Shown in pieces: positions 1 through 41,661 of a stretch of DNA of 64,000 nucleotides. The notes under the pieces are model-generated. The model was not told the DNA's origin. It searched no databases and saw only the letters and a program-made list of their open reading frames with translations. This DNA is from Aldrovandia affinis (taxonomy: Eukaryota; Chordata; Actinopteri; Notacanthiformes; Halosauridae), in NCBI GenBank assembly GCA_029706075.1, contig JAINUG010000394.1, positions 124,001 to 188,000 on the forward strand. The letters are read 5' to 3'. Numbering within the stretch: the first letter of the stretch is position 1; the number at the start of each line of letters is the position of its first letter. The position numbers and the translations under genes are program-made.

Positions 1-403
1 ATAACAGCCAGATCATGCTTTTTGTATACTCTTTTCCATGTGGGCAGCACAAGGTCCATAAGGTCAGTTACAAACCTGCAACCAGTGCTAAATGTTGGTA
101 ATGGTAATCTAGTTAGCCTTATTAGCGTGCAGTTACAAATGTCCTTGTAACATTTTAAAATCAATGAACAGTGTAAAATGGCCCACAGTATATTAGCTAA
201 GGTTCTAGGAAAAAACTATTTTATCAAATATCTTAGTATTGTTATTGTAAAACATTGGTATAGGACAAAATACAAAAGCAAAATACTACCTTCAGGTAGG
301 TAACTTGTCACCTACTTGAAGAGTGCGGACTACAGTACACCATGCTCAGAATTTGTTAGCAAATTGCAAATCCCCCTCTCCAGAAGAGGACAGGTATACT
401 CAC
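1..403. other. lrrk2 intron 47, partial
   Basis: AT-rich sequence between exon 47 and the left edge. I see no exon or clear repeat in it. Confidence 0.6.
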
Positions 404-3400
404 GGGTACAGGTAGTTTGTTGTGGTGTCGATGGTCTTCCAGACATTGTAGTCGGCAGTGAAGGACAAGACCCGGGTCCCACAGCCAGCCCAGATGGTAG
501 TCCGGTCCAGTGAGTGACCCGATGAGCCCAGACACATCAGCGGAGTGTTGATGTTCCCAATCTGGACCGTCTTCATGGGCTGACCGTTCTCACACTGCAA
601 TTGAAAACCCAAACCATGGGGGTCCACCAATAAGTAGCTGCCTAAACTAACAATTAGTTCAAAATCTGAAACAGGCACACCAAACCATCTGTCCATTAGG
701 TGTCATTGCTTTATTATCATTTTGTTCTTCTTGGTTGGAAAAATTTGAAGAGTTACAAAATCTCTGGTGTTATTAAAAAAAAAAAAAACTGCATGATAGC
801 TTTGCTAATGTTCTCATGCTGAATAAAACAATGAAATGATAGTACAACCATATTTTCATATGGGAGAAATCTGAGAAGATTATATTTCACAAGGAAAAAT
901 GAACAAAATAAAAATACATAAAATAAATTATGATCATTGAAATGATCAATGCAGCACGATCATTTTTACTAGAAAACTGGGTGTGTATCAAGGGTGTTGT
1001 TTTCATTTGTAGGTCTTGTAGGAGGTAAAAACCCCTCTGCATGATAGTTTTGCTTATGTTCTCACATCGAACAAAACAATGGGAGAAATCTCAGATGCAA
1101 GATTATATTTCATGGAAAAAAACGAACTGAATAAAAATATCGATACTCAATAGAAAAGTTACGGCATTACGATACAAACTCAACCTCAGTGTAGCTGTGG
1201 AAGAAGAAACACAAAAATGGACACAACTTCAAATCTATGTCTACATTAAAGGAATTGTTTGTGTATGTATGGGGGTAGGTCGGCTGTGGGATTCGAAACA
1301 CAGTCCACCCGGCCGGACTGCACAAGAAATATGGTTAGCTTGCCGAGGGAACATTAGGTCCCCAGCCAATGGAACAAATCACACTCTTATTTAAACTACA
1401 GGGGGTAACATTGCTTTCAGTAGTGGATGTTCCTGTGCTCACTGAAACCTCTGAACTGCAACACGATCATTTTTGCTGGAAAACTGGGTGTGTATCAAGT
1501 GCGTTGGTTTCATTTGGGTTTTAATACAGACTGTTGAAGTGGAAATCTTATGCTGATGTTTGCTATGCTATGTTTCAGACTTTTGTAAAAATTACACTCT
1601 GTCTGCAACTCTACTTACACTGATCACACTTGAAATTATTGTAATTAAAATAATAAGGACACCCGTGCAACCTGACAGCATCCTTAAATGACCTTGAATT
1701 TTATACCACAGGAGGGAAAACACTGCAATTCCTTTCAGTTAGGCTAACATGCGCATAATTCCTATTATCTGTGAGTTTACACTGGAGTGTGTTTCAGGAG
1801 TTGGGGTTGGGGCAAGAGTATGTACTTTGTAGATTCTGCTAAAGCACAGACTCATTGTAACCATGCACCCCGCGATCCTGATGCTGAGTTCGGACCATGC
1901 CAGTGCGGTCTGTGGCCGCCAATCCTGCAGGGCAGCGAACAATTGCTTGTACCAGTACGAGGGAGGGTTCCACTCGGTGGGATTTTCCTCCTTTCATCAC
2001 ACATCAGTGACTCCTCATATCAATTGGGCACCTGGGGTATACATATGCCAACTGCACAGGGAGTGCACTCCTCTGAAGCCATTACTGCGCAGCCGTGCGT
2101 ATGGACTGCAGAGGGAAAATAAGCAGTGGCTGGTGGAACGCGATTCAGAGGAGAGAGATAGATCTACAAATACAAAAAATTGGGCACTCCTAAATGGATG
2201 AAAAACAGGATTCAAAGGAAAAATAGGATAATATACAATTAAACTGCAACATGAACAAGGGGCTAGTTCAAGGAGGGGGTAATGAATTTAAGGAGAACAA
2301 TGTAAACATGACAGTACCTGAACCACTGAATCTTCATAAACAGCCAGCGCTCCATCAGCAGTCCCCACTAACAGATAATTCTTCTTTTTGCTTTTCAAAA
2401 ATAACAGAGAATATCATGGGCTCAATTCACATTCACATAGACTTATTAAATACCTTCAGCTTAACATAAGAGTGCACCTGCATTCTTACCAGTTATCAGG
2501 CTCATAGTTGTGGACCTGTATTTTCTACCAGTACTGAGGTTAAAAGATACTGCCTCACCTGTGTTGTCTACCAGTACTTAGGTTAGATACTGACTTACAT
2601 TTACATTTTTACATTTTAGGCATTTAGCAGACGCTCTTACCCAGAGCGACTTACACAGTTTATATTTCTTTACATACAATCCATTTATACAGCTGGATAT
2701 TTTACTAAAGCAATTCAGGTTAAGTACCTTGCTCAAGGGTACAACAGCAGTGCCCCACCTGGGAATCGAACCAGCAACCTCTCAGTCACAAGCCCAGCTC
2801 CCTAACCATTACACTACACTGCCAGACTTAGTTGTGTGTTTAACCTGTATTGAGGCTGATGTTTTCATGCCTGTGCTCTTTACCTGTATTGAGGCTCATA
2901 TGTACTCACCTGTGTTGAGGGTGTGAGTGGTAGAAGAGTGATGTCACTGCATCAGTGACACTCTGCAGACAGTGTCGTCTTGATGTGTCCAATGTATTGA
3001 TTACTATCAGAGCACCAGACTGTGTTCCTGCCACCATCCAATCAAATGACTCTCCTGGGACTCGCATTGTCACCAGGCATAGGACAGGACTGCTGTCAAT
3101 TTCCTGTAGGGAGTGGGGGGGGCAAAGCTTAAATAATTTACTGTATCATCAATGTACCTGCACACAGTGACTTTCTAAGGATCACTTGAATGTACACCAC
3201 AGTGTGTTTAAAGTTACCAACATAGATGCTCTCAAGTAGCCAATCCATTTGAACGATTTGTTAGTACAGTTATGCACCTTGCAGCCCAAATCAATCCTGA
3301 CTATGCCAGTGTCAACTCTGGCTGGAAATCCCACTGTGCAAGTATGTCACCCAGGAAGGGAAGGCTTCAGTTAGCAGGATATCCCTTACATTGAGTGTGG

Positions 3401-6400
3401 GTGTGGGCTTCCAAGCAGCTCCATCAGTAAAGGGGCTCACCACGAGTACAGATTAGCCTCTATAACCTAGATATTGCAGGGTTGTATCAGGACTGTGCAA
3501 TAGAGATGAATGTATGTACATCCAGGTCCCCCCAAAAAACGAATTTGTTCATTAAAACACTTTTTTGGGAGCAGACAGTGTGTGGATATTTTCTGGAGTC
3601 TGGAGTCTGGAGTGTGTCATTGCCAACGGTTACCAGGAAACATAACTGGTTTTGTCCTGCCAGGAACAGAGTGGATTTAAGTTTTCTGGGGCTCCTCTGG
3701 CTACCGCTGCATTAGTTCCTTCAAAGAATGCTCCAGATGCTTACAGGCTATCAGTTGTCATCAGTGAGAGATAAGCCTCTCCTTTGATTGGCCCTGGCTC
3801 TCCTGTAGTTCTGTGTAGCCTATAGTATGGAAAATAGTCACTGATTTGTGGGTGAGTGCATTGGAGGAGTGCATGGGTTGCTGCCACAGTGCTCTTTGTG
3901 TGGGGTGTGTTAGGGAGTAGTTCTAGGCACAACTGGCAATTCAAAAATCGGTCCCAAAAAAACGCAAAACTGGGAGAGTGCAGTTTCAGTGCATACCTGA
4001 GAGTTGAGTTCCCCAGATCCCAGCTCCACGGAGGTGATATATCCCTGTCTCTGGCTGCTGCTCCCGCTGCCGACCCAAACATGCGGTCTGTCTCTCCCAC
4101 AGGACACAGCAAAACACTCAGCGCTGGACACCCCTCTCCGGAGTTCAGCCTGTCAAACACCTGGAGACATGCCCACCCGTGAGCTTACCTGCCACATAAA
4201 GCTGCCTGTGAATATATATCCACATACAGTGCCCCTTTAAAGTACACCCAGTCTCAAAAATGAAGTCTCAAATTTTTTTCGAACATTAATTACAATTAGA
4301 AATAATTTAGATTGACAAGTCTACCCTGCTTATCATGCAAATTGTAAACTAGCTCAGGGATAACCAATCACCTTCCAGATCACACACCAAGCTAATTGGC
4401 CTCCAGCTGTGTTCAATTGTAGTGATTCTGATTACTTCAGAATAAAATCAGCTGTTCCTAGAGGATTCCACTGCTGGGTAGTGCATTTCTCATCAACCAT
4501 GAGCAACAAGGAGCTTTCAAAAGACTTTAACTTTAAAGGATAAAGTTGTGGAAAGGCACATATTAGGAAATGGGTATAGAAAGATTTCAAAGGCCTTAAA
4601 TATCCCTTGGAGCACGGTCAAGACCATAATTAAGTAGTGGAAGGTGCATGGCACCACCAGAACCATGCCTAGATCAGGCCGTCTGTCCAAGCTGGATGTC
4701 CGAGGAAGAAGAAGACTGATCAGAGATCAGAGACTTTAAAGGAGCACTATATATATAGTATATGCATGCATGCATGTGAGCGGAGCAGAGCACGAGCATG
4801 AGCAAACATGATATGTGCAGAGCGTGGAGCAGGTTTTCAGTTTGTTGACGAACAGCCTCTCTGACCTGCTCCAGTTCCCTCACAAAGCCTATTAGCTATG
4901 CGCCTAGTTCAAACTTCCCATGACCAGAAAAGCCGGGAAACGCACCCCACAATCCTCGTCTCCTCCCCTCTCTTCACACTTGATACTAGTGATGGGAAGT
5001 TCAGAGCCAGGTTAACCGTTCGCAAACAATGACTCGAAAATGTTGTGATTCTCGTTCAGAGCCGGGTTAACAGTTCGCGAACGATTAGTTCAGACACGTC
5101 TCGTTCGTTCAATGGAGTGGAGATAGCTGTTCTTTGGCGTGATAGATTAGCTTGGCCCATGAGTGCTAAACCATTGCAATGCATCGTTCTGATAGCAAAC
5201 ACAACTAGATAATGTATCCGATTAGAAAAACTGAATAGTTGTTATTGTCGTTCATTTCATCAGTAGCCTAGGGTAATGCCCATTCGTTCACTCATAAAAC
5301 AAGAGTTTAGGCAGTCAGCAGCTAATGGGTTTACTTTTGGTTTTACAATGTTATGTCCTGTAACATTGCATCATTTACATGCTTTTGCACAATGCGATCA
5401 TTGTAACGGTGAGCACAGGGTGGGCAATACGTCCAGCATTATTTTCAAGCGCTCTGTCCTCCGTCCGGCACATTCCTCTGCCGGACGCCCATTTGCCCTC
5501 CTTTTGAAATCTAGGCTAGAAAAACACTCAGTTCTTCATTCAATCACGTTTGAAGATTCGAATGTGCTTCTTATTGGTTTATGTATTTGTCAAATAACAA
5601 ATCGCCTGTGTCATTGGTCTAATAAACGTCAACAAATTCCACGCTTTAATGACAAAATTGCCGAAACTGAAGACTTCATACAACCCAGTGGTCAAAAGAG
5701 CACAGATTTATTTCTAAAAGCAGAAAAGACGATTATCATGCCTTCTGTACAATGTGTCGGTATGAGGTAGACGTGGAAGCTGACAGTGTCAAAGCAGAAC
5801 GCCAGATCTGCATCAACTTTACTGAGGGGTGCACAGAAAGTTACCAAAGGTTCCAGGCCAACAGAAGGCTTCTGGAAAATGCCAGGAAGGGACAGAAGCA
5901 ACAAAAGCAGACCATCCAGTGTGAGTACACATTTTCAATCTCAGGTTATGGTTTTAAATTGGTCATATAATTACATGTTACATGCTGCCTGAAGTGTCCT
6001 CCATTCTGGGGTGTTGGAAATGGCCACCCTAGGAGCAGCTAGCTTAGCCACAGGAATGCTAGCTGCCCTCCATTTAGTTTGTGTGAAGCATACTAGGTGG
6101 CTACATATTTGTAGGCCACAGGCTCCGAGGTCATCACGTCCCAGGGGCCCTTGCAGCCAGCTAAACTTAGTGTTCGGCTAGTTATGTCCATAAATGTTAA
6201 AGTATGAAAACCAAGATGTTGTTTGAGTGAAAGCCCCTTTTTCCCTCATACGAATGATGTGTGTTTGAGTGTATGTGATGTTATCACCGTCACTGGGTGT
6301 GTATGTGTTGAGAATGACCCCCGTGTTATTCCGATGCATATGTTGTACCACTGTACATGCTTTATTTTAAATAAAGAAGCAGTACTGAAATTTCTAGACT

Positions 6401-9400
6401 CTTGAGTCCCCCACCGCTGCATGATGTTTAAAAACATGTTGGTTGGAAGCTGAGTGCGATGTAGGCGGAGCCGCTCGGTCAATCGAACGAGTAAAATGAA
6501 TGAGAGCCGAGGAAACTAATCATTACTCGCGAGTCAGTAAAAAGAGTCGTTCAATTCGAACGAATCGTTCGCAAACTGCACATCACTACTTAACTAATAG
6601 CAGGCGTCGTGGAATATGCTAAATACTTCATCAAACAAAATGATAGAAAATACAAATGCAGCATTCAAATGACAGAGGACTGGTAAATCAAAGAATGCGG
6701 CGACTGTGTCAGCACTGTGGAGTCCCTGTGGAATTTAAAAGACACATTGCAAGAAAGCATGATGCAGACATGCAGATAGCACAGCAAAAGGTAGGCGGTG
6801 GTAGATAGCTAGGCTACGTAGCTCCACTCCCAACCAAGCCATTCATCTACACAAGGTGATTTTGAGGGGAAAGTCCCCACCGTGACAAAATAAAGAGAAG
6901 AAGAAAAAAATTATGCATGGATTATGAACCTCTTACAAAAGGAGAGCGTGAAGGGATGCGCTACTTTGCATATGTAGCTCACCCCGGTTATACACCGTCT
7001 TGAGGCTACTGTACGAGACACCCTCATACCCCATGCGCTACATGATGGAATATAAGATGCGAGCAAGGTGATGACATTGCTGTCAATTGACATTTGGACA
7101 AATGGGGGGAAATGAACGCACTGCATATCAGACTTTTATTGACGTGAATTTGAATAATAGGAATTGAGAAAATGATCAAATAAAACAGGCCCTCTGACCT
7201 CAGTATACGGAACACCGTGAGCTCCTCGGTAACTCACGGTGTTCCGTAAAGCCCTTCATCCTTAGCAAATACAGATTTAACGTTACTGACCATTCTCGGA
7301 CTATGTAGGCTACTTGTATGTAGAAACGAATGACGTTATTACTTTGCATTATTTTTAAATCGAGTGTTAGTTTTTTAAATCGATGATAACCCTCACAACT
7401 GTAAGGCACATCGTGTATTTATTTAGTGACTCATGCCATTTACTGCTAGTGTTAGTGTCATATTGTCATTATTAAAGTTCTGGTTCGTTACTTGCTAGCT
7501 AGGCAATTACGTTAACTGACAGCTCAATGCATGCATATTTAACTGGCCATCCAAAAACTAACTAAATTAAGCAAAGCGACGCAACATGAAATGAGCACAT
7601 TTTCTAACGTTTATTGCGTGTTTTTAACATGTGGTGAAAAGGTGGGTTTTTGCATTTTTGCAAGGTCATTTTTGCATTTTTCAGCCATTTGCTCGGACAC
7701 CAGGACATGCTGTTCGAAACTGTGGCGTAGGCTATATATGTATATGTTCTAACGTTATACAAGTAAACTTTATCATATTTTAATGAAATACATGTTTTCC
7801 TGAACCGCTCCCCGACCAGCGTGCTCTAATGGCAGTAGCCGGAGCGCTACTTAAGTTCGTTCTTAAATGTTATATTCAAAATTATTTTAGATTTTTCATT
7901 ACAATCAGATGAATATAGGAGGAAACAGCCTTATTGTAATGAAAGTAATGGGTTAAAAATCGAATTATCTCTGCCGGTCTCATATAGCCGACTTACCTGG
8001 ATGATGGGATAGAAATGCTAGTTATTAGCCAAATTTAGCTTGAGTGATGCGATTTTCTCCTCAGAAAGCCTGACATCAACAACTGAAGATGACATTCGGT
8101 CTTTGTGTACAGGTGACGATGATAATATAAAATTATTAAATATGTACAATGAAATTATAACTCAAGATAGGTATGTTTTACATGGAAATGTATATTTGAG
8201 CTATACATCCCACTGTGTCCAGGTGTTTTGTCGTAGAATGCACCCCGACCATGAATTGCACGACCTGAGCGCGAGCGCAATACGTGATCACTCCCCAGCT
8301 AAATTGACCAAATTAACTGGAATTCTTATAGCAGGTTAAATGTATTTCTAATATTTTTATACGCTTAATCAACCTTCGTTTTTATTACAGACTCAAACTA
8401 CTTAGCTACATTTTAGAATACGCGGTTGTACAGGGGTAATACTCATATCGGTGGTAAAGCAATAGCTTTCCTATATAGGAGATCAGAGGACAATTTTAAG
8501 GGAAAATATAGCCTGGAACCGTTATAGAATTACTCATTCATATTCCTACTTTATCCGATCCAAGTATAGACATATAACCAACTATAGGCTACCTCTAAGA
8601 GATGACTTTAATATCTTCCTGCTACTTACTAAAAATAGCCTACTGTATAACGCATTTGATGCTGGGGTGAACAGGACGAAAATTCCCGGCAGGGCTGGTT
8701 TTTACGCTTGCACTGAAATGCACCCTACCTAACTTTGACTAGGAACCTCTCACACCCATCAAACTCACTCAGGTGACATATACTCAGTGCTGTCAGTGGC
8801 CAGAATTCACTGGAGGAACCCACCTAGGTGAGTCCTAGATTTTTTTGGGTGAATATGGAAAAAATGAACGAAAAGATATCGCTATGAAACTCTGCCAGTT
8901 AATTACTTACACAATTATGAAACTTTTTTGTATTACAAGTTTTCTAGAATATGCTAATTAGGCAATATCTCATTAAATATGCATACATTTGCATATATTT
9001 TAAAACCAAACATCTAGATATTGGATAAAGCTAGACTTAGTTTTCTAGGTCCATGCTCTCAACACAGCCTTGCATTTTGCAAAACAGCCCAATCCCATCA
9101 CTGTAAAATTGAGTATTGCTTTCATTTCAGATAATATCTTGTCATAAAAACTATACATACATGTCATCTATTGATTAGATAATATATTCAGCTATATCCA
9201 CACAGGAGTACTAATGGTAAAATGTTTATCAGAAAGTTCAGCAATCCTTTATTTAAATGTTTTATCATAATTTGTTGATGAAATGTTTTCCTTTATGCAA
9301 AACATGTTGATCACAATTTTGGAAATACTGTAGTATGTGATATTTCACATTTTTACACATGGTAAGTGTCAATTTTGGTAATGTCATATCTGACATTTTT

Positions 9401-12400
9401 GCATGTTTGTCTATTTATGACACTAAGAAGGTAGAGGTATTGATGATTTGCACATTAAATCATAAGCTCTGCCACTCTCAGGGAAAGAACATGATTGATG
9501 AAGTCAATAGAGTTTGAGACCCTTCTTCTCACTTTCCCTCTACCTCTTCCTCTCCATCTCCCTCTACCTCCCCCATCTCCTCTTCCTCCACCATTCCCCT
9601 TCCTCGCCCATCTCCCCTTCCTTTTCTTATGTCCCCTTCCTCCCCTATCTCCCTTTCCTCCCTATCCCCTCTTCCTCCGCAATGTCTCCTTCCTCCCCCA
9701 TCCCCTCTTCCGCCGCCATGTCCCCTTCCCCCTATCTCCCGTTCCTCCCCCATCCCCTCATCCTCCGCTATGTCCCCTTCCTCTCCCATCTTCCCTTCCT
9801 CCCCCATCCCATCTTCCTCCTCCACCACTCACTCTTACTCACTCTCTCATCACCCTGCTCCATTCTTTGGCCAGGCTCCATAGCATTCACAATTCTTTTT
9901 TACATCAGGTGACTCCTTTTATACATAATGAAGTGGTGACTATTGAGTGAACAATTTAGCAATTACCACTTTCTGTGTTGTGTGCTTTACTAACCCACCT
10001 GACTAAATATGGTGGAAATTGAGCACATGTCATGTTATTGTGACATCATGACGAATTGAAATGAAATTTGAACTTTAAATAAGAGTTTTGTTTGTAATGT
10101 TTGGCAAAATGGTCTATGCAGTTTTATAATGTGTGTGAAAACAATGAAAACATACTATTAGTTTTGAAAAGTGATCAAGTGTTTAGATGGCTGCGTTAAC
10201 TGTTTTGAGAGCATGGACCTTAGTTTGGAGAAATGTGCCAAATCCATGCCACATTGAGAGAAACTAACATTTTTATTCCATTTTAACAACATATTAGGAG
10301 ACAAAAGTATTTACAGAACAGATTTTGGATACAACCTTTTTTCACTTTATAAATCATAAAATACTATGTAAAGGTATTAAAAATGCGTTTTGGGCATGTT
10401 TTTAAGAACAGAATGTATTAAAAATCAGGAAATTAGCTGTTTGCATTCACTATATTCTAACAGACAACTACAAAACCAAGGGTTTTGGGGTTTCTATATT
10501 TATATGTAGACCAATTCCCATGCAATTTGGACACAGCAATCCATCCAGCAGCTCATTCAAATGCAAATTATTTTATTGGGGGAGTGAAGTTGAGTTGATA
10601 GATAGCAAGCAAACAATAACGTTAGTTGCATTTTGGTATTTATTAAAGAATCATGAAATTAATTGGCATCAGCTCTCAAGTAACGTTACCTACATTGTTT
10701 GGCAGTGAGTAGTTTCCTACACCATCAAAACGCACTTGGAAACTGAAGGAAACTCTGACAGGAGGAGGTCTGGCAGACCCAAAGCCACAACAAAATCAGA
10801 AGACAGTTTCTAAGAGTCAACAGCTTGCGTGATAAGCAGCTCACAGGAAACAGCTTCAAGCACAGCTTAACACTGGTCGTAAGGAAGGAAGTTATTTTCA
10901 ACTGTGAAGAGAAGACTTCGAGCTGCATGTTTGACAAGTCGAGTGGCAGTAAGAAAGCCATTGCTAAGATGGCAAAATAAGAAAAAGAGGCTTGCCTGGG
11001 CCATGAAGCACCACCAGTGGAAATTCTGAAAACTCTGAAATGTACATTATTTTTCAGTTTTTGGTAACCAAAACTTTTTTTTTTAAACCTCTGGCAGTTT
11101 ACCGCTTACCTTTGTACCATTTCAGGTTATTCACTGGACTTGAACTGCTTAAATTTCAGTAAAAATTGGAAAATGGGGGTGTTCTAAAACTTTTGACCAG
11201 TAGTGGTCATTGTCTTGTTGGAAGGTCCACCTACGGCCAGGTCTCAGCTTCCTGGCAGTGGCAACCAGATTTTTGACAAAAATTATCCTGGTACTTGGTG
11301 ATATTCATTATGCCATTGATCTTAACAAGAGCCCCTGGACTACTGGAAGCAAAACAGCCAAAGCATCAATGATCCACCACCATATTTGACAGTAGGTATG
11401 AGGTGCTTTGAGGTTCCTTGTATGCAACCCTTTTTTATGCCAAACATGCTTATAGTGTACATGCTAAAAAGCTCAATTTTGGTCTCATCTGACCATAGCC
11501 CCCGGTTCTAGTCATTATTCCAATGGCGTTTGCCAAACTCTAGATGCTTGCATTTGTTGGCTGTTCTCAGTAAGGGCTTTGTTCATGCAACGCTTCCAGA
11601 GAGCCTGTTGGTGGTGTCTAATGCTTAATTTTGAGACTTAGTGGCCCCCCTCCTCCCCCTCCTCTGACCAAAGATCAAGCCGCACTACACCTACCTGTGC
11701 AGACGAGGGTCTGTCCTGGGGGTTCTCCCTCAAGCACTCCCTCATCAGGCCTTGCAACCTTGGCCATGGAGTGCAGCCATAGTGCTTCACTGGATCTGTC
11801 AATCAAGTAATCAATCAATCTTTATTTTGTATAACATTATTTACAAGTAGGTTGCCATAACACTTCACAATGACATTTTCCAAAAGGGAATCAAAAATTT
11901 GAGCCAAGGTGGAAAAAAATTGGAAAATTATTCCCTGACCTCTAAAAAGGTGACCAACTACTGGAATAACTCACAAAATTGAAATATTGCTCATAAAATA
12001 GAAAAATAAAAAATAGAATAGAAATATAATAGGCAAGCACTGTTTAAAAAAGAAAAGAAAAAAAGTTTAGTTTTTCCCCGGTTTTATCCCAATTTAGTAG
12101 CCAATTACACCCTCTATTTATTTTGATTTACCCTCCCCACACGGGTCCGCCGCTCGTCACTACGAGGCAAGCTAATTCTCTGAGGGCAGCGAACTCCGCT
12201 TCCTTCAAGACGGAATTCGCCCACCCACGTTCTGGAGAATCCTCACGTGCTTCACGGTGGACCCGAGCCATCTCACCCTCCCCCCTCCCCTTGGGGCTGA
12301 CAACCAGGGCTTGTCTGGTAGAGATGGGTGGAAAATGTAGTCTATTCATGGATCTTATGGGATTCTTGAATATACCAACAGCAGATTCAACCCCATTCAC

Positions 12401-24400: not shown

Positions 24401-27400
24401 ATTTTAAAGAAGAATTCCACAAAAGTGCATGTACAGTATGTGTCAATACTGGAAAATGGTAGGAAGGAAATCCAGCATCAAAAAACTATCTTTCGGGGCC
24501 TCGGATAGCGTAGCGGTCTAACGCACTCGCCTTGACTGGTGCTTTACAAATGTGAACTGCCTATTGGGGGCAGCGCTGTCCGCCCCGCAGGGTTCGACAA
24601 ACCCGAAGTAGGTGCCAGACTGGCAAATAGAAGGCCTAATTTGGGAGAAAAACTGGAAAAATATTTTAAACAAATGAATTTTTTTTTTTAATAATAATTA
24701 GACCCCGATTAATTAATTACAGGGGGCATTTTAAGCATTTTGCTCCAGTCCGCTCAATGCTAAACATGTTGCAGGGAGGGGCAGAGGGTGAGCCGACATG
24801 AACTCGCCAAGAGAGCGGGGCAGAAAGGGTGTCTCTAACAAAGTAACCAACTCAGGCTGGGCAAGTTCCGTGGGAAGACAGGCAGTGAGTTTGTGACACA
24901 ATTTATGGGGAAAGGGCAAAGGTCCTTTGCACTATCATATTCTAAAAATAAATAGAAGGCTAAAATAATTTTGCTGCTACTATTAATTTGGGAGAAAAAC
25001 TGGAAAAAATATTTTAAACAAATGAATTTTTTTATTTTTATAATAATAATTAATAAGCCAGGGAATACAGACAGATTGTTCAAATGAATAGCACCTCACA
25101 TTACAGAGGGGAAATCAAGTGGTTCTAATGAATAGTACCTCGCACAGTGCAGAGGGGAATTCCAACAGGCTATTCTGGCTCAGCTCAAGCCGGACCAGGT
25201 GCTCCAGATGCTGCTGGTCCATCAGGCAGCTCAAAGAGTCCAGTTCGTTCCCTGATAGGTCCAGCAACCTGATGCGCTCTTTGTCTCCCCCCAGGGAGCC
25301 TGACAGCAAGGGGCTGTCCACTGACCCCAGAACAGGGGAATAATTGCCTGACAAAGGAATGTTGCAGAAGTTGACCTTAAATACTCCACCTCCACTCCAT
25401 TATCTCTGATTATGACTACAAATGATATTCAACCATATTCAACTTTTAAGGTAATTATTTAACCTGCATATCCAATTATAGACTGGAATGCACTTTTAAG
25501 TTGTGTGCAAAAAGTTAAGAACCCCAAGGAAAGTGTTTAGTTTGACATACCAGGTACTCTGTCGGGGCTGACGTAAGGATGTAAATGCTTTGCATGTCCA
25601 ACCACACACTTTCCATTTTATCACCTCATAAATCTTTCCCTTTACAAAATGACATTTTACAGAGTATTTAGAAAATGACATTTTACAGAGTATTATCTGT
25701 GGCCTCACTGACCTCTTTGGTTTGGAGATATCCTCAAGCATCTCCGCTGGCGAAACTCATTTGGTTCTGAATCTGCGTTTCCTCCCTGTAGAGTCAGAAT
25801 ATAGGACCTGATCAGCTTTATAACAAAAGAATGAATGTAAGGAAACAGTACCAGGTTAAAGCTCACCTCTGCGCTCACATGTCTGCGACGCCCTTGCTGT
25901 TGGCTCACTAACAGCCCGCTCAACTCTTCAGACGAGTAACAATGGGGGCTCTTCAAGCGAGGGAGTCCATCACTTCCTGTTCAAATCAAAGCACTTCCTG
26001 TCAGGTCACTCAAATCAAAGTATTAACTATCAGGCAACTTACATTAAAGGGGGCATCGCAGTGGGGGGGAAACTATGTCACCATAGCATGACAGCACACT
26101 GCAATCAATCAATCAATCAATCAATTTCTAAGAAATATTTTAAAAAAATGTAAAGCCAATGTGAGACAAATCTGTAACATTATTCCCTGACCCCTTCATT
26201 GGTTGTGGTATTCACACTTGTGCACACTTACCGTCGCTCTCAAATTCCTCACTCAGGAAGACCAAGCTGTCGTCCGGGGAGAAGAGGCTGCTATCGTCAC
26301 TGTCGTCAGAGATGTACCCAGAGGAGCAGGCGTCTGCCATCTTCCTTTGAGAATGAACCCTCCTTCTCTGATAGGACGACACCTGCTTGGCCAGCAACAC
26401 ACCTTTACCTGCACATAGGACAAAGGATTTATTCTGAAACCTGTATTTGATGCGTTTATTTGAATCAAATTCTTGATTTTTAGCAGGGTGTTGATTATAC
26501 AGTAGGTTGTGTTAGGAACCTGTCCTCTTTATATACATTGTATTGTACTATATGTAGTAGTTTTCTGTACCTGTTTTAATAATGCCTAAATATTTTATCT
26601 CTGCTGCTTCAGGCAAGCTAATTTCCCTCTCAAATTATACACATTTTCTTCTAGGCTAAAAGACCTAGACTAGTTGTGTGAACTGTCAAAAAATAAGCTT
26701 CTGAATGAACTGCATGAGTGCATAACCACAGGAAGGGGAGGCACTACAAACAGCACTCACTGGTCATTCTCCTAAGGCTGGAAGACCTGCGCTCGGTGAA
26801 CAGGGGTTTCAGCCAGGAGGCCTCGATGTTCCCCAGGCGAAAGCCCCCAGGCAGAGGGCGCTGTTGTTCAGGTCCAGCCCCAGCTTCCCCAGCAGCAGAC
26901 TGACCACAGGACCGTCCCGCCTGCGGACGCTGATGCTCAGGGCGCTGCGCAGGTGCTGCTCATGGGTCCCGCTGGCCAGCAGGAGGTCCACCAGCTCCAG
27001 TGGACCTCCCTTTTCACACACCTGAAACATACAGTTAATATCACACACCTGAGTCACACATCTGAGTTACACAGGTAATGCCACACACCTGAGTCACACA
27101 GGTAATATCACACTCTCACACACCTGAGACACAGGCAATATCACTCTCTTCCATACCCAAGATATACAAGCAACATCATACATTTCACACAAACTAATAG
27201 CATTACAAGATTCCCTGCTAGGGCTGGGTATCGAATTTCGATACTGTTTAGGTATTGATTGAATCAGGTCGATACCATCGACCATCAAAACATGTGAAAA
27301 TGTTAGATGGCAGGTTCTGACACTTTTCTCTAACAATTTTATTTTTTATTTAAACCTACGTTAAAAAAAAAACTCCTTTTCTAAACCTCTTCTCACAGCC

Positions 27401-30400
27401 AATCTCTATTAGGGAAGGCTATGTACCTGTGAGTAAACAACGGACAGCACCTAACCGCGCTTGAGCAATGTCACAAAAGCGATCTAAGGTCTGGCTTCAC
27501 TTTACAAAGGTTGATAAAAAACAAAGTGACATGCAATAATTGCAAAAAGATTATAATCGTGAAGGATGGTAATACTAGCAATATGATGAAGCACCTTATA
27601 GTACACGGAACGAACATGAGGCGGGAGAACTGCATCGTATTTGACTGCAAAATAAAAACATTGTCCTCCTCAGCCTCAATCACAACACAATGACAAACGA
27701 TGATGATGGTGACGTCGAGGGGATATCACGTAATGAATCGCCTGATTCAATTGGATACTTATTTTTTTTTTTCCCAAGCCACGCGGAGCCGCAACATAAG
27801 GCTGAAAGAGCCGCATGCGGCTCCGGAGCCGCAGGTTGCCGACCCCTGCTATAGGCGGTCATCTGACATTAGCCAGTCTAACGTTATTTGCTGGTTAATG
27901 GTAGCTAGCTAGCTTGCTAAGTTACTTATTGAGAAGTACAACTAAAATTGACAAATGTTTCCAAGCTAACGTTAGTTAAATCAATCATGATGAATGTTTC
28001 ATAACTAGTTCTTTACATTGAATCATACATTTTTCTTAGCTAATTAACTGTAGTCATTAGCTTGATAGCTAGCTAAGTCAATGTTACTATTTCATGTAAA
28101 GGTCCCCCTACCACCCCCGCTGAAAGCATCTCCCGCCCTCGTGTGGTAGTTATGCCAGCAAAACATACACCATTTGAGTTGGCAGCTAGGACAAAAATGT
28201 CTAAAGAGAAAAAAGAAGAGTGCCACAGAGCTGTGACCAACTTTATAGTAAAGGAGTTGTAGCCTCCTCCTCTATTGTGGAGGCTGTAAACCAAATGTTG
28301 CAGTTGCACTTTATTTGTTTTATTTTGTGTTGTCCTATTCAAAGGTTAGGTTACACATTGTTGCCTTTTTTGTCATCTCATTAGAGAGATCGTTCTTCAA
28401 ATTTATAATATTTGACATTTATAAGAATTATTTAATTGTATTAATTTGTAAAAACAAATGGTATACAATGGGAGGGAAAATGTGTAGGCTATTGGATAAA
28501 TAAATGTGCTTTCATTCACACACTACAGGTATCGAAAAAAGTATCATTCTGGTATAAGTATCGAATTCAAAGTATTGGTATCAGTATAGAAAATTTAAAA
28601 ACAATACCCAGCCCTATTCCCAGCACCCTCACCTGGTAAATGAGAGACTCTGTCTTTGTTTTCCTGTTGATGTCAGCTCCCAGGTGTATCAGACACTCTG
28701 CCATGTTGATATCACCATCTGAACACGCCTTTTCCAACATAGTGTATCTGATGTCACTGTCGGCAGCCATCTTGGAGAGGCACAGACAGCTCACCTTGTG
28801 GAGCTGAAATATGCCAAGAAAAACACACTGGACAGTGTAATGAAGGTTCCTCCATATTATCGCCAGACGATAATAATGGGCGACTTCAATTACCCCTCTA
28901 TCAATTGGGAGATAGTGACAGGTCAGGGCAAATGTGAAGAGGAGTTTTTAGATATGGTCAATGACTGCTTATTGGTACAGTCTGTTACTCAGCCTACGAG
29001 AGGGAAATCAATACTGGATCTGGTTTTGTGTAACAATCCTGATCGAATTTGCAGCACAGAGGTAGGAGAACCAATAGGGGCAAGTGACCACAGTGCAGTT
29101 ATTTTTGATATTTTTTGGCAAGTTAAGACAGCCTCCTCTAACTCTCGAATTTTTCATTTCAGATGAGCTGACTTTAACAAAATGAGAGAGAATTTAAGTA
29201 ATATAGATTGGGTAAAACTTCTAGATTGCAGAACTGTGAATGAAAAATTGACTATATTTAAAAGGGTTATTGTAGATGTACAGTGTAAATTCATCCCCAA
29301 AGTAAGGAAAAATAGGATGAAAAAACAGTCTCCGCAGTGGATGACTAAATCTTTACGGGTGATTTTGAGGCAAAAGAAACGACTGTATAGAGTATATAAA
29401 AAGGATAACTCAGAGAGAAACAAGTTAGATTATTGTAATATGTGGGCTAAGGCTAAAAAGGAAATAAGAGCAGCTAAAAGGCGGTTTGAAATTAAAATTT
29501 CCCAAGATGCAAAAAGTAACCCTAAGAAGTTTTTTCAATATTGTAGTAAAAAAAGGAAAATTAAGGATGAGGTTAAGTGCATTAAGAATAAGGAAGGAAC
29601 TTTGGTTTATAATAATAAGGACATTGCAAACACACTAAACAGTTACTTTGTGGAGAGCTTTACTAGAGAAGAGGTTATAAATATGCCTAAATGTATAGAC
29701 AAGTTACGGAATGTTTTGGAGGACTTTGAGATAAGGGATGTAGAAGTACTACAAAAACTACAAAAACTTAAGACAAATAAGGCAGCAGGCCCGGATGGCA
29801 TATATCCCAGAGTACTCAAAGAACTTGGGGAAATTATATATAAACCATTGACAGATATTTTCAGTCAATCCATAATCACTGGAGAAATACCAGATGACTG
29901 GAAGCAGGGTAGTATAATTCCAATATATAAGAAGGGGGACCGTACTGACCCAGGGAACTATAGGCCTGTCAGTTTAACTTGCATCACATGTAAAATGCTG
30001 GAATGTATTATTAGGGATAAGTTGGAATCATTCTTGAAAAATAATAGTAGTTTAAGGGAGAGCCAGCATGGATTTCTCAAAGGGAGGTCATGCCTAACAA
30101 ACCTCCTGGACTTTTTCGAAGAGGCTACAAAGTGTGTTGACCTGAACCAGGCTTATGATGTTATATATTTGGACTTTCAGAAAGCATTTGACCAGGTACC
30201 ACATGAGAGGCTCATTGCTAAAATGAAATCAGTAGGAATTGTAGGAGTAGTTTCACAGTGGGTTAAAAATTGGCTGCAAGGCCGAATACAAAGAGTAACA
30301 GTAGGTGGGGCCGAATCTGACCTCGGTGCTGTGGGCAGTGATGTCCCGCAGGGATCGGTGCTGGGACCTCTGCTCTTCCTTATTTACATAAATGATCTGG

Positions 30401-33400
30401 ATATGGACATTAGTAGCAAAATAGTTAAATTTGCAGATGATACTAAACTTGGGGGTTTGGCAAACAGTTTGGAATTGACTAAAGTAATCCAAGATGATTT
30501 AAACAAAATCCAAAAATGGGCAGATACATGGCAGATGACGTTCAATATTGCTAAATGTAAAGTTATGCATGTGGGAAATAAAAACATTAGACAGGAGTAT
30601 TTTATGGGAGGAGAAAAGTTAGTAGGTGTTCAATTTGAAAAGGATTTAGGAGTTGTAGTTGATCAAAGCCTATCTGCATCAAAGCAGTGTGCTACAGCAG
30701 TGAAAAAAGCCAACAGGATGCTGGGATACATAGCAAAAAGTATTGAGTATAAATCAAAGGAGGTTATATTAATGTTATATAATGCCTTTGTCAGACCGCA
30801 CTTAGAATACTGTGTGCAGTTCTGGGCACCGCACTACAAGAAAGATATTGAAGCTCTTGAAAAAGTCCAAAGAAGGGCAACTAAACTGATACCTGGTATG
30901 AAAGGTAAAAGTTATGATGATAGACTTAAGGCACTCAATCTATTTAAACTTAGCAAACGCAGACTTAGGGGGGATTTGATTGAGGTTTTTAAATTCCTAA
31001 AAGGGATTAACAAAGTAAAATACCAAAGATTTTTAAAGATAAGTGGGGTCAGCAGAACAAGAGGCCACAGGTGGAAATTAGTTAAAGGCAAATTCCGCAC
31101 AGATATTAGGAAGTTTTTCTTTACACAGAGAGTTGTCAATGCCTGGAACAGCTTGCCAGGTCAGGTAGTAGAGGCAGAAACGCTCGGGCTATTCAAGGCC
31201 AGGCTAGATGTAGTACTAGATGTTCTTTAGATTAGGACATGATGAGCCAAGATGGGCCGAACGGCCCGTTCTCATCATTATGTATTCTTATGTTCTTATG
31301 TTCTTATAATAAGTGTTCCCTGGCATTCACTCACTCACTCACCGGGTCAGTGCGCTGTTCAGCTCGGCCTGATTTCAGCTGGAGGAAGAGCTCACTGTCA
31401 AACGCCTCCCTCTCCAGTTCCAAGGCTGCAGCTGAACAGGTGTCCAGCAGCTTCCATGCCACTTGGAAACCCTGTGGAGTGGAGCACATTCTCAGATTTA
31501 TGCCCAAATTCCCAATGTGGCCATTATTGACACGTATTCAAAAAAACTTACCTTTGGAATCTTTTAAAACCTTTTTTTAAGGCTATCATTGTAAAGAAAT
31601 AAAAGTAAGAAAAGCAAACCATCACAGAATCAGTAGTAAAACAGTGTCCTCACACACCCACCTTCAGTTGTATCTCTGCATCCTCTCTGTATTCCCTCAG
31701 AGTGTGCACAACAACAGAGGCCAAAACGGGGACAATCATTCTGGATAAATTCTTCTTGGCGATGAGGTAGTGAAGCAGACTCAGACCCCAGTAGTGTATT
31801 TCTGAATGTTTAAAATGGTTCAAAGGTTAAAAAACAGAACTGGTCTGACGAGCTACATTCAATCCCGATGGTTCAGAAAAAAATCCTTTGCCGTTTACCT
31901 CTCTCTCCAGGGAACATCTGGAGCGTGTGCAGAACTGTGTCTATTGCCCCCTGCTGGCACATAAGGTCCACAGCACCAGAGCAGTCAGCCAGTGCAGTGA
32001 GAACTCTCAACCCACAATCTTGGATATCCAGGCTGCTGATAAACTGGATGGGAAAAGTGCGGGAATACCACTTAAACACGTTGAGGAGTAGAGAGGAAAT
32101 ATAGAACATGGTTGCAGGTTAAAGATATAGAAATGAATCAGGGGAACACGTTCCTACCCGGTTGAGGGCCTCCAAGAACACAGCGTGAGCGCCCTCCACC
32201 ACACACTGGTTCTTCAGCACCTTGAGGGAGATGTCCGCCGTGTCAGGGTCGGCCACCGAGACGCCGTGCTCCCTCAGTCTCCTATCTACGTCCCAGCCAA
32301 GCCAATAAATCAATCAATCAAATGCATACTCAGTCACACTACTGGAGAGTGTTCAAATGCAGTGAAATGTTTTGTGGAGGTGAAGATCAAACATGTTACA
32401 AAACCTGTATCAACTTTTAGTGAGCATTTATGTGGATAAATGAGGATACACTTGCACACAAGGCAAGGCAAAGAAGGAAGAACCCTACCCCACACTACGC
32501 TGCAACCACTTCGGAAGCAACCACACGCTCAGAGGACAGTACATAAAGCTGACAAACATCCCAGGCAACAGTTCGGATAGTCATTATATAATGAATGCAT
32601 CAACATTGTGTTTTATTAAACTCAACAGGTTAACTAGTTAGCTGTTTAAACGAACATAACGTTATTCACCAAAACGCTGCGAATCCATTGCGCAAACTCG
32701 CTATTCATGTGTACACACACATAGTACCCTTTGCCCTTTTCGGAGTATCATTACAATAGATTGTGTGTCTTTCCGTGTCACTTCGATGTCCCTTTGTTAA
32801 AGAGACAAAGCACGCAAACGGTGGTTACTCCACGTGGTCAGTTTCAGTGCTTTGCGTCTCATACATTTAACCAGCAAACATTCCTCAACCATATACACCC
32901 CTTTTCCTCATTTATTTATTTTCATCAATCCAATGTTAGCTTCCCTTTTCATTTCTTGGTTTCTGTTGATTTTGTTATGTTTAATAAATATTATTTGTTA
33001 AACATTGAGTCTCTTTTGATGTTATAGAAACATGGGAATATAGGCAAAATAGTCCATTTCCAACTCCAAAATTATTCACACTTGTGTATTGTCAATAGTT
33101 GTAGCTTTGATTTAAAGTTTGAAGCATACATATATTCATAATCCATAAGTGAATAATCAAATGAGACTGATTATAATTATTCAATTTTATGAGACTGATT
33201 AAATATAACCTGGTGTGATAAAACTACACCTGGCCCCTACAACACTATTCCACCCTCTATACTACTGTATTCTCCTAGTGCAGACACACTCTTCTCTAGT
33301 CCAGAGATGAACATTGTCATTGTGAACAACAGGAAGTGAGTCCTAACTCTTCCTTGGGTCTGACAGGAAGTGACCTCGGACTCTTGTCAGGGTTCACCAG

Positions 33401-36400
33401 GAAGTCAACCCTGGCTCTTACCAGGGTTGAGGAAGGTCAGGCTGGCCCTAAGAGCCTCCAGCTGGACCTCAGGCAGGAAGTTGTGGGTTTTCATTGCCCT
33501 CAGGATCTCATTCATGGCCATGGTGACCTCATCCAGACTCGCCGTTCTGAAAATAGCCATGTGACATGCATTTTTTGCATTTTAGACATATAGCAGATGC
33601 TCTTACAATAGGTGCATTTAAAATGGCAAGAATATATAACTTTACTGATCTCACAGCTAGAGCTAGAGATCAGTAAAGTTACATGCAGCATGCTTCCACA
33701 CAGAACACTGCAAAAGAGCACTGGATCATAGAGAACAGTACTATGTTATGGAGTACATTTACATAGAGCACTTTACCACAGAATGCACTTAGCACAGAGT
33801 GCAGTTATATAGAGAACCTAACCATAAAGGGCACATGGATAGAGCCCTTTACTATGGAGTACACTTATGTATGGTATAGAACACTTCCATAAACTTCACT
33901 TACAAGCAGAACACTACCATAGAGAACCCTAACACACTAACACAGAGATCATTCAGAAAGAATAGCCAATAACAGGTTGACACAAGATCTGAGGTAATCA
34001 GAGTTTCTTATCCCGTTTTGCATTAACATACAACCACAATCATACACCATGTCTAAATGCGTGGCAGCACCTACAAGACAGCTTGAAATATTGACAAATC
34101 AAATGCTGAAATACGTAAGTAAGTATGAGACATACCGTCTCTGGAAGAGTTTATGAAGCAGCTTGCAGGCACTTTCTGCAATTTCAGGGGAGGAGCTGTG
34201 CTTCCTCATCATTTCCAAAATGTTGATATGGATCCCATTGGACAACAACAGAGAAGGCATTTTACCTGGGGAACAGAGTCAGTAAGAATGTTAAGAACAG
34301 TTAGAAGAAGAAGTAAGAAGTAGGAAGAGGAAGCAGGAAGAAATCAACTCCAGACATAATTTTTTAAAAACAGGAACAGGGTTGTTTGCTAATGTTGTGA
34401 TACATTATGTGATGTTATGGATAACAAGTACATTCAATAACCTGATACTATACAAGTTCTATACTATACAATGACATAACCTGCATATATAATTTCATGG
34501 TCTTACTGTATAAGAGCTGTGGCAAGCATATCCTCTGGGGATGATATTAGGAATGTAGTGTGACAGCGAAAACAATGACAGGTCCTGACAGACAAACTGA
34601 CAGACAGATAAGGGGACTACAGCTAAGACTGTCAACCCTGACTCTGAAAGGCCTTACTGCCCCTCTGCTTAAGAGGTGGATTGTGTAGTCTACTGTGTGG
34701 CTCATCCTGTGGGTGGGTCAAATCAAACCCCTGCTGGTCAATTGGACACCCAAAGTCCGGTGGTATAGAGCTGCACATGAAGCGTCTTCCTCCGATTCAT
34801 GTCTGTGCAAGCTTAACTTGTGAACTTGTAACTTGCGGTGTGACAAGAAGCAGTGGCTGACATCAGTGTGTGCTTGTCTATGCTCTCCCGAATTAACAGT
34901 GGAGGTTGCATCGAGTGTGACTTAAGAAACGATTGGGCCTTCCAAATTGGGAGAAAAAAGAGAAAAAGCATTTCAACATTTTAAAAATAAAAAAGAGATG
35001 GATTGTGGGTAATGACTTAGTCATAGACTGCTGTCCTGTGCAGCCAACACTTTAAAGCCCAGAGATCAAGATAAACCCTGACTCTATGACCTGGCTCTGC
35101 TATGGAGATCTGGGCACCCTTGCAGAGGCCTCTGGAGGCCTGTGTGCGATTGGACTCACTGTTGTGGTTTCGATGAGTGTTCCCAGAGCCCTGGCGGCGG
35201 CCTGAAACACGCCCCATGAGCTGGAGTGCAGCAGCATGGCAGCCATCACCTGCCTGTGAACAGGTGTCCTGCAGGGGACAGAGAAGTGTCGACTTCAGAC
35301 ACGGGCGAGGCCCCAACTCTTCCTATTCCCACACAGCAATGAGCACACATTCATCAAATGCCGACCATGCCTCTACGTGGTCCTGACACGTGTGATGTTA
35401 GCATGGTCTCATTAAAAATAACAGTCTCTGCTGGAAACATTTTGCTGTTTCTGCAAAATAGTCCTCCCAGCAATGCAAATGCCTGTATAAAACTAATGAT
35501 GAATTGCATTAATAATGTACACAGCACCTTTCATGGATGTTAGATTTCTTTAGAATGTTGAGCATGGCAGCAACTTTGCACCAGAACACATCTTCTGAGG
35601 TGGAGAGGGGGGGATTTATTTTAAAATCTTCCCAATCACCCACAAAGGAATAAAATACTGACCTCCCATCTTGATCCCCAAAACTCTGGTGGAGCCGAGG
35701 GTCCTGCACCAGAAGGCTGTTTAAAGCCAAGCATGCAGCCTCCTGGTCACAAAGGGACAGCGACAGACAGTGAGATATCTATTCTGTGTAAAGTGTAAGA
35801 TGGCAGAACAGTGAGATATCAAGTCAGCATGTAAGACGACAGACTTTTGAAACATACGTGATTTTGGGTTTGATCAGTCCATCACTGGTACGTTAATGAA
35901 CTTAGTTAACCGGACAGATTATTGTTTGAGGAAGGGGTTAGCGTTTGAGGACATACTGTATATGTTGTGTGAATGACTGAAACATGGTCTGTGAGAGCTG
36001 GGTATACTGCACAGATACGCCATGTGGGGGCGCTGTGGACTTGCCTGAACCAGAGCGTCAGCTGTGTGGAACTCCAGTGCTGCACAGCAAGCATCTACCC
36101 AGGATAACTCCACCACCTCCTCCTCCCTCTCCTGCTCCCTCTCCTCCTCCTCTTCTGCAAGTCCCTTATTCTGCACTATTGTTTCAGCTGAAAGGGTCAA
36201 TTCAACAATATATTTGAACAAATGTGATATTTCTGTAATAGTGGTTATAATATATTGTTTTATTGAAATGCGTAAATATATTTATACACAGCCGACTGGT
36301 TTTGATCAAATATGATCATTCAAATTGGCTTTTTGCATCAGGTATCCAGTTTGAATAATGTGCACTTGTATGTGTGAGCAACAGTAAATGTTCCTGTGTA

Positions 36401-39400: not shown

Positions 39401-41629
39401 TAAAAAAAAAAAATAAAAAATAAAAAAATACAAATACAATGATTATGATATATAGATCACATAATTGGTTTGTATACACAGCACATCAACCACAGCGCAA
39501 CAATTTCAGTACAAATGTATCTAATAACCCAAAATACCAACAGAACACTCAAATAATGCAACACACTCGCTGTCAACCACAACATGATCACTGAGCCTAA
39601 ACCAAACAGTGTCACCCAAAAGTAATAACTCTAACAGTGCACTCATTTATATGTCTTTGTCATACTTGTACTGTATGGTTTGTCTGGATGTTTGTTTCAT
39701 TATGTCCCTTTGTCATTGTGTTCATATCAGTGTATATGTGTCAAATCGTGTATATGTAGAGGTGTATGTGTTGGAGGGGGGTGGTCACCTGGTGGGACAC
39801 TGTAATTAATTTCCTTTATTGTACTGTACATTTCTCCATAGGTCTCCACTGTTGTTGGTTTACTCTTGTTTTTGTTTTGTTTTTTGTCTGTTTGTTCGTT
39901 GGTTTGGTTGTTTTAACCCCCCTCAAAGAGACTTCACAATGTTTTTCTCCTCTTTTTTGCCAAAAAATTTTAATATTAAAAAATAAACAAAAATAAAGTT
40001 GACCTCCCAAGAGGGGGGGATGGTGGCGGGAAAAAAAAAAAAAAAAAAAAAACAGTGCACTCATATGAAACTAATGAGGTACTACTGCAGCTCAGTTGTA
40101 TCACTGAATATCAGCAGTAGTGAAGCCAATAACAAGGTGTTATCTCACTTGTATATTGTATAGTTTTATAGCTCGTATTTATATCTAGGTTAATTATGCC
40201 TGAGCTCGATAATAAAACCATTTATCACCCAAGCTGATTTCACCAGATCAACATAGTAGTATACATTGGTTTTTCACATTGTCTATCTTTTAAACCACGG
40301 CATTCCTCCTAGATTTCCTCCTGGCGAAATCCATTGCAATGTTGTCTCAATGTCCATTTTTTGCAACAGTTCAGATTCGATGCCCATTAATGACAGGACA
40401 AAGAGCTTATTGCTCTTCTGGCTCATTGTAGATCTACCAAAAGTTAATTTTACTGCCATTAGTGAAAAATGGCACAAGTGGAATCTTAATAAACAGTTAA
40501 TAAAGTGTTAAACAAAATGTTTTTTACTGTTTGCGAGTGTTTAAGTGGATAAAATTGGCAGCCAATCGCCAGTGGACAAATGTGGCGGCCAAAATTGGCA
40601 GCCAACTGCCGCCCCTGAAAGGGGCTTCTGACCGGGCTGATGCAGCCAGGAATCGAACCCCGGTCACAGTGGTCAACCTGCACTCCAAGTGAGTGCCTTT
40701 TACCGGTTGTGCCACCCGGGGCCCCTGGGAGAACTACTTGGTAATAAAGTCACTTCTGTGAAATGAATATATATATATTATTAATCAATGGATATGTTTC
40801 GATTTTTTTTCATTCCTAGTTAAAAAACATTTAATATAAAAGTATTGACTTGTAAAGTATTTGAATGTTGATTAACAGCTTACTTACTACTTTGCTAAAA
40901 TAAAGTTAAGAAATTTGAAAAAGTGTAACTTGCTCTGGCTGCCTGAAGAAGTCACTGCCTCCCAAGTCTGTAAAACCAGCTGCTTTGGACAGCAGGCCCC
41001 TCTGGGAATAGGGTGGTCTCTACTGCAGAAACATAAAGGAGTGAGCCCCACCTGATTTTAAAAGGAGAGCCAGGGCACGGAGTTCCACCATTATGAGCTT
41101 GCACTGTTGACTGTGTACTGACAACGCCTTGAGGATCTGCCTGTTAACACATACACACAGAAACAAACTTTATAGATAACATAAGACAACATACTTTCAC
41201 TTGTCCTATTCCCAAATCAGTGTCTGGTGATCTCCAAGCGCTCACAAATGGGCACCATTACTGGTGTGTTGTTCCCCCACCTGTTTAATAATGTATATTT
41301 GTTCTGGTGTCTATAAGTTGTAAAAGATATAATCAATTCAGTGCACATTTTAAGCTTTTACAGGTAAAATTTTATTTCCAGTCTTCTGATATGTATCCCC
41401 TCCCAACTGATATTAAAATGCCAACAGATCACAGCAATTTGGCAATAAAGATTGACTGATTGATTGATTGATTGGTTATGTTTATGATTTGCCATTGTGC
41501 AGTCAACCCTTCCTGAGTTTGTTTGAGAAACCTAATAATAAAGAAGTTCTTGTTCCTCCATTTCATCCCAAGTGCTATTGAATTTTCTCTAACGCACACA
41601 AACACAGATATGCATTTGAACACGCATGT

Positions 41630-41661
<32 letters not shown>

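What the first reader, a model, noticed from the sequence alone, without database searches (positions are those of the whole stretch)
2466..33430. Minisatellites seeded by the host exon's own splice junctions, in at least seven exons of one gene
In exons 13, 23, 33, 36 and 45 the donor, and in exons 19 and 21 the acceptor, is the first or last unit of a tandem array in the adjoining intron. Each unit repeats a few to about 20 exonic bases plus the splice signal. Seven of 47 exons is more than I would expect by chance. The arrays plant consensus-like decoy splice sites close to real ones. It is established in principle that tandem duplication of an AGGT-bearing segment can make or move splice sites. 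A junction-centred expansion recurring through one gene looks undescribed to me, and may reflect a genome-wide mechanism in this fish.
Basis: partly seen in the sequence, partly recalled or inferred. Interest (0 to 1): 0.78.

Follow-up and report, generated by a model that had tools for sequence, protein, structure and literature searches.

The report
Splice-junction "mirage" minisatellites in fish LRRK2
Several introns of a fish LRRK2 gene carry short tandem repeats whose first or last copy includes the exon edge and its splice site, a pattern already described in lancelets as "mirages"; here it looks like ordinary repeat growth beside exons rather than a new mechanism.

Summary
The gene is LRRK2, minus strand. 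Of the seven reported junction repeats, five (my exons 14, 20, 24, 34, 37) pass my systematic threshold; two (exon 22 acceptor, exon 46 donor) fall below it and rest partly on reading. Two more turned up: exon 41 donor, exon 33 acceptor. Copies in the strict set are 72-84% alike, so assembly duplication is unlikely.

Against naive placement the count is high (7 of 95 junctions; circular-shift mean 1.7; 1 of 1000 as high). Introns under 1 kb show no excess (3 against 2.4), and with transposon-like DNA removed it is 7 against 3.8 (P 0.035). Mock junctions peak 20-25 bp inside the intron, not at the junction. Firmer: arrays hug exon edges (13 of 16 within 20 bp or across; 6.0 expected; P 4e-5, and 4e-5 to 5e-4 over six thresholds).

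The pattern is in print as lancelet "mirages" (PMC3087553, PMC3902484). I file this as a vertebrate example of a known kind, probably neutral. Genome-wide extent and decoy use are untested.

The parts
403..43445 (-). LRRK2 gene, 48 exons annotated in the window (human-like 3' remainder would lie beyond the left edge; inferred)
   Evidence: ORFs and splice-site scoring; 689-aa LRR-Roc-COR stretch matches solved human LRRK2 at E 9e-288, kinase pieces at E 5e-94
33329..33428 (-).
27014..27178 (-).
25971..26049 (-).
25078..25162 (-).
19724..19802 (-). Exon 33 acceptor duplication (not in the finding): 55-bp period, 13 exonic bases, 83% identity, score 28
18893..19005 (-).
16211..16671 (-).
13595..13701 (-). 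Exon 41 donor duplication (not in the finding): 58-bp period, 17 exonic bases, 78% identity
2833..2923 (-).
2465..2598 (-). Related-looking array in the same intron (period 40), apparently split off by a SINE-like insertion at about 2596-2826
   Evidence: sequence; relation and SINE judged by eye
42468..42631 (-). Intron 3 array, period about 36, starting 15 bp past the exon 3 donor; not spanning as detected
25641..25694 (-). Intron 23 duplication (26 bp, 2 copies) starting 18 bp past the exon 23 donor; not spanning
22304..22348 (-). Intron 29 array (17 bp) ending about 5 bp before the exon 30 acceptor; not spanning
21434..21635 (-). Intron 31 array (31 bp) ending about 10 bp before the exon 32 acceptor; not spanning

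Best explanation
These are 'mirage'-type minisatellites: short tandem duplications (periods about 20-100 bp) that arose repeatedly in the intron DNA flanking exons, some of which happened to take in the exon edge. A duplication across a junction leaves the protein unchanged as long as the exon-proximal splice site stays in use, because the extra exon tail and splice signal then lie inside the intron; so it survives like any intronic repeat, while duplications wholly inside exons are purged. Compact introns (median 339 bp after removing transposon-like DNA) make contact with a junction common. Later copies grow by slippage or unequal exchange and decay. Shown: the arrays, their exonic part, their exon-edge clustering. 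Inferred: independent origin (units differ in sequence), neutrality, exon-proximal splicing, purging in exons, the copying process.
For: Non-junction arrays of the same kind sit beside other exons (one search list: introns 3, 23, 29, 31). Mock-junction counts peak inside the intron, not at the junction. Exons beyond about 20 bp from their ends are almost free of duplications (15 of 1880 positions covered at 21-40 bp in, against 282 of 1868 at 20-39 bp into introns). No excess of spanning arrays in introns under 1 kb. The protein read with exon-proximal sites aligns to human LRRK2 with no insertion at the exon 33 acceptor and exon 34 donor. Lancelet mirages are reported not to disturb splicing (PMC3087553, PMC3902484; passages). 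Identities of 72-84% for the seven strict cases suggest that the copies are not new.
Against: With transposon-like DNA removed there is still a mild excess of spanning arrays (7 against 3.8, P 0.035) and a strong excess of arrays within 20 bp of an exon (13 of 16 against 6.0, P 4e-5; 4e-5 to 5e-4 over six thresholds; 10 of 12 against 5.7 in trimmed introns under 600 bp, P 0.005). Uniform placement plus selection does not predict that clustering. No RNA evidence exists here that decoys are unused, and some copies score above the real site.
Confidence: 0.72

Rival explanations
1. The splice motif itself seeds the duplication: a donor or acceptor sequence and a nearby chance copy act as short direct repeats, slippage between them starts the array, and so arrays begin at junctions.
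For: Units carry CAG|GT-like or CAG|G motifs; 15 of 18 homologous copies keep GT or AG (my reading). Array edges cluster at exon ends. Exonic overlap is 6-24 bases.
Against: The mock-junction profile peaks at +20 to +25 and not at 0. Arrays at introns 23, 29 and 31 hug exons without including the splice motif. Exons 1-13 have no spanning array at score 24 or more (0 of 25 junctions).
Confidence: 0.13
2. The arrays work in splicing: spare donors and acceptors act as back-ups or decoys that tune isoform choice.
For: On a crude matrix with recalled values, copies score above the real site at exon 34 donor (3.2 and 2.9 against 0.4), exon 20 acceptor (2.5 against 1.5) and exon 33 acceptor (0.0 against -1.3), and about equal at exons 22 (0.4 against 0.5) and 24 (-1.4 against -1.2, with a non-homologous GT beside it at 3.7).
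Against: Both exon 14 copies lost GT; copies at exons 37, 41 and 46 are weaker than the real site. Extensions such as +37 at exon 34 and +26 at exon 46 are not multiples of three. Lancelet mirages are reported not to interfere with splicing.
Confidence: 0.07
3. Pure chance plus ascertainment: the arrays are randomly placed and the reader looked hardest at junctions. This overlaps with the best explanation, so the odds do not add to one.
For: In introns under 1 kb spanning arrays are 3 against 2.4 expected; in trimmed introns under 600 bp 5 against 3.6. The window was chosen because of this pattern, so every P value is post hoc.
Confidence: 0.15
4. Assembly artefact.
For: Conserved exons carry apparent frame breaks (exons 20, 41, 42, 43, 45), so the assembly may be noisy.
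Against: Copies differ by 16-28% in the seven strict cases; misassembly would give near-identical copies.
Confidence: 0.03

Closest known systems
[quoted passage not shown] PMC3087553 and PMC3902484, passages seen
   Same: Tandem units that include an exon edge and its splice site; donor and acceptor sides both occur; Adh3 units are given as 10-72 bp; many but not all units keep AG/GT
   Different: Lancelet, not vertebrate; the globin units are longer (150-160 bp) and those of BflGb6 are 81-100% identical; copy-number difference between haplotypes was seen there and cannot be tested here; here at least seven junctions of one gene are involved
Human 6-16 (IFI6/G1P3) minisatellite with multiple splice donor sites (Turri et al. 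1995; title seen in a reference list, gene details recalled)
   Same: A vertebrate minisatellite that supplies several splice donor sites
   Different: One locus; by its title several donors are provided in the transcript, whereas use is unknown here
Intron gain by tandem duplication of an AGGT segment (Rogers 1989; ATP2A1, Hellsten et al. 2011; both as cited in PMC4974935, which reports a potato RdRp case; passages)
   Same: Tandem duplication that carries splice signals
   Different: There a new intron or exon is made from the duplication; here introns only carry extra copies
Human introns from tandem arrays (Zhuo et al. 2007; title seen in the reference list of PMC3087553, content recalled)
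   Same: Introns associated with tandem arrays
   Different: Concerns the origin of introns, not repeats at existing junctions

Membership tests
Mirage minisatellites (as described in PMC3087553) | Tandem repeat unit spans an exon-intron boundary, with exonic bases and the splice site in the unit | tested here: met
   7 of 95 junctions at score 28 or more (exons 14, 24, 34, 37, 41 donors; 20, 33 acceptors); two more by weaker matches
Mirage minisatellites (as described in PMC3087553) | Both 5' and 3' boundaries can be affected | tested here: met
   5 donors and 2 acceptors in the strict set
Mirage minisatellites (as described in PMC3087553) | Many but not all copies keep AG/GT signals | tested here: met
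   15 of 18 copies by my reading of the sequences printed (donors 9 of 12, acceptors 6 of 6); a partial third copy at exon 34 and the copies beyond the SINE-like insertion at exon 46 were left out
Mirage minisatellites (as described in PMC3087553) | Normal mRNA splicing is undisturbed | not testable with these tools
   No RNA data; only the uninterrupted protein alignment is consistent
Mirage minisatellites (as described in PMC3087553) | Copy number varies between haplotypes | not testable with these tools
   One assembly only, and the genome tools did not complete
Intron gain by tandem duplication | Duplication creates a new intron or exon | tested here: inconclusive
   Protein from exons 25-36 aligns to human LRRK2 without insertions at the array-bearing junctions there, which suggests old exons; intron positions of other species were not compared
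Minisatellite with several used splice donors (6-16 type) | Several repeat copies are used as donors in transcripts | not testable with these tools
   No transcripts

The most novel reading that the evidence does not exclude
In this fish, tandem-duplication birth is focused on the first tens of bases of intron beside exons throughout the genome, so that a sizeable share of splice sites gain mirage copies and the genome carries a standing reservoir of near-consensus spare splice sites.
Probability: 0.2. Interest if true: 0.6.

Novelty: new member of a known kind. Interest (0 to 1): 0.32.

Why it matters
It extends the lancelet mirage pattern to a vertebrate gene with at least seven affected junctions, and it gives a quantitative lead: arrays hug exon edges more than intron length explains. 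If genome-wide, that would link repeat birth to exon-intron architecture and to the supply of cryptic splice sites. If not, it is ordinary repeat turnover in compact introns.

Tried and rejected
First statistic: short-core fitting of 20-32 bases around each junction against adjacent intron gave only mild excess (12+12 core, score 9 or more: donors 6 of 48 against 2.4, acceptors 4 of 47 against 2.3; at 15 or more none against about 0.5 each). I kept it as a warning and moved to banded self-alignment, which allows longer matches with indels. A first version with a trinucleotide complexity filter did not list the exon 41 duplication, probably because of that filter; I replaced it with a microsatellite mask. 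Thresholds of 24-34 and 22-34 and several intron-length limits were run; the text quotes threshold 28 and gives ranges.

Rows dropped: one search left out arrays that overlap my transposon-like intervals. Compared with the 21 arrays at threshold 28, four went this way (intron 4; two in intron 44; 2514-2598 in intron 46, which overlaps the interval by three bases) and two in intron 37 were merged, leaving 16. None of the four dropped spans a junction or lies within 20 bp of one. The intervals were judged by eye from the sequence, not by a repeat library, and the trimmed P values depend on them.

CAGGAAGT/ACTTCCTG recurs in three arrays (exon 14 donor, exon 22 acceptor, intron 31) and is the most frequent of 1120 permutations of its letters (11 occurrences), but 8 of the 11 lie in those arrays, so it may only be a consequence of copying and is no proof of a shared seed.

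Comparative genomics was not possible: no vertebrate collection is held, and the window's own genome did not answer.

Papers: PMC3087553, PMC3902484, PMC4974935, PMC3618361 and PMC4039745 were read as found passages; PMC2812944 as outline only. Turri 1995, Zhuo 2007, Hellsten 2011 and Canestro 2002 are not held; I saw only citations or what citing papers say. My searches listed no paper that I recognised from title and abstract start as reporting mirages in a vertebrate; apart from the papers named I opened none of those listed, so this is weak evidence of absence.
Full report
What the gene is. The window carries LRRK2 on the minus strand. I chose coding seeds from ORFs, scored splice sites around them and listed 48 exons between 43445 and 403 (the exon 45 acceptor was moved to 4160 from then on). 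A 689-residue LRR-Roc-COR stretch from exons 25-36 matches solved human LRRK2 at E 9e-288 over residues 1034-1722, and kinase pieces match at E 5e-94. Some exon borders are less sure: exons 10-11 and 12-13 do not chain in phase as annotated.

Is the observation there? Yes. A banded self-alignment of the gene with microsatellites masked finds tandem duplications whose exon-proximal copy crosses the junction at score 28 or more for seven of 95 junctions: donors of exons 14, 24, 34, 37 and 41, and acceptors of exons 20 and 33. Three copies of the gene with bases shuffled in 200-bp blocks gave 0, 1 and 1 matches at that score anywhere. Identity between copies in the strict set is 72-84%, so these are unlikely to be assembly duplicates. 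TRF reports two of the nine.

Is it more than chance? That depends on the null. Shifting the exon map around the gene gives a mean of 1.7 spanned junctions against 7 seen, with 1 of 1000 shifts as high; at score 24, 2.3 against 9 with 0 of 1000. Sliding each array within its own intron gives 2.75 against 7 (P 0.009), but restricted to introns under 1 kb it gives 2.4 against 3 (P 0.44) and under 600 bp 2.3 against 2 (P 0.71). The excess therefore comes from four introns over 1 kb (14, 19, 32, 34), two of which (19, 32) hold long transposon-like stretches. After excising stretches that I judged by eye to be transposon-like (intron total 36.0 to 19.9 kb, median 429 to 339 bp), 7 are seen against 3.8 (P 0.035); over thresholds 22-34 P ranges from 0.019 to 0.069. 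A first, cruder statistic also gave only a mild excess. All P values are post hoc, because the gene was selected for this pattern.

Is it centred on junctions? No. At score 24 or more the number of positions inside an exon-proximal first unit is 0 of 95 at 30 bp inside the exon, 5 at 10 bp inside, 9 at the junction, 9 at +10, 13 at +25, 5 at +40, 3 at +50 and 2 of 89 at +100. The junction is on the shoulder of a cluster that lies just inside the intron. The more robust pattern is that arrays hug exons: 13 of 16 arrays at score 28 start within 20 bp of a junction or cross it, against 6.0 expected (P 4e-5; 4e-5 to 5e-4 over six thresholds), and 10 of 12 against 5.7 in trimmed introns under 600 bp (P 0.005). 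The 16 are fewer than the 21 because four arrays overlap transposon-like intervals and were dropped and two were merged into one; with the four put back as misses it would be 13 of 20. Four of the 13 (introns 3, 23, 29, 31) do not include the splice motif as detected, which argues against the motif as the seed.

Do the copies look like usable splice sites? By my reading of the sequences, 15 of 18 homologous copies keep GT or AG (donors 9 of 12, acceptors 6 of 6; partial copies left out). On a crude weight matrix whose values are recalled, copies beat the real site at exon 34 donor, exon 20 acceptor and exon 33 acceptor, are about equal at exons 22 and 24, and are weaker or dead at exons 14, 37, 41 and 46. 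So the decoy claim is true of some arrays and not of others. Whether any is used cannot be told without RNA. The protein read with exon-proximal sites aligns without insertion to human LRRK2 at the exon 33 acceptor and the exon 34 donor.

How it most likely works. Short tandem duplications arise in intron DNA next to exons. One that takes in the junction is harmless if the exon-proximal site stays in use, since the duplicated exon tail becomes intron. One wholly inside an exon alters the protein and is lost. The copies then grow, shrink and decay. The arrays, their exonic content and their exon-edge bias are shown; neutrality, independent origin and the copying process are inferred. Why arrays hug exons more than trimmed intron length predicts is open: insertion of transposons away from splice sites, undetected old insertions and a real mutational bias all remain possible.

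Is it known? Yes, as a kind. [quoted passage not shown] PMC3902484 (passage) adds PGBD5 and cites Adh and troponin C. A human minisatellite that provides several donors in an interferon-induced transcript is cited in PMC3618361. Intron gain from AGGT duplications is discussed in PMC4974935 (passages). I recognised no listed paper as reporting mirages in a vertebrate gene, but most listed papers were not opened. I file the finding as a new member of a known kind, with the number of affected junctions in one vertebrate gene and the exon-edge clustering as its additions.

Noticed in passing
26761-27021, 13685-13867, 13269-13425, 12467-12636, 3997-4160: Conserved LRRK2 exons 20, 41, 42, 43 and 45 each change reading frame internally although their splice sites look intact, and exons 10-11 and 12-13 do not chain in phase as annotated; a noisy assembly seems likelier than a pseudogene, but neither was proven.
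   Followed up: partly
28845-31315: Non-LTR-retrotransposon-like sequence fills most of intron 18, ending in short tandem repeats near 31290 (judged by eye, not tested).
   Followed up: no
27218-28620: DNA-transposon-like element fills most of intron 19; its ends look like inverted repeats (GGGCTGGGTATCGAA ... ACCCAGCCC, judged by eye).
   Followed up: no
2596-2826: SINE-like insertion appears to split the exon 46 donor array into two halves, so the array would be older than the insertion (judged by eye).
   Followed up: partly
47010-47541: First exon of an SLC2A13-like sugar transporter on the plus strand, head to head with LRRK2 (name recalled, not searched); no junction-spanning repeat seen at its donor (best local score 14, below the 18 used as floor).
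   Followed up: partly
21459-21635, 25971-26000, 33330-33405: The 8-mer CAGGAAGT/ACTTCCTG recurs in three otherwise different arrays; 11 copies in the window, the most frequent of 1120 letter permutations, 8 of them inside these arrays.
   Followed up: partly
36357-36673: A long GT/GA-rich microsatellite begins about 4 bp past the exon 8 donor.
   Followed up: no
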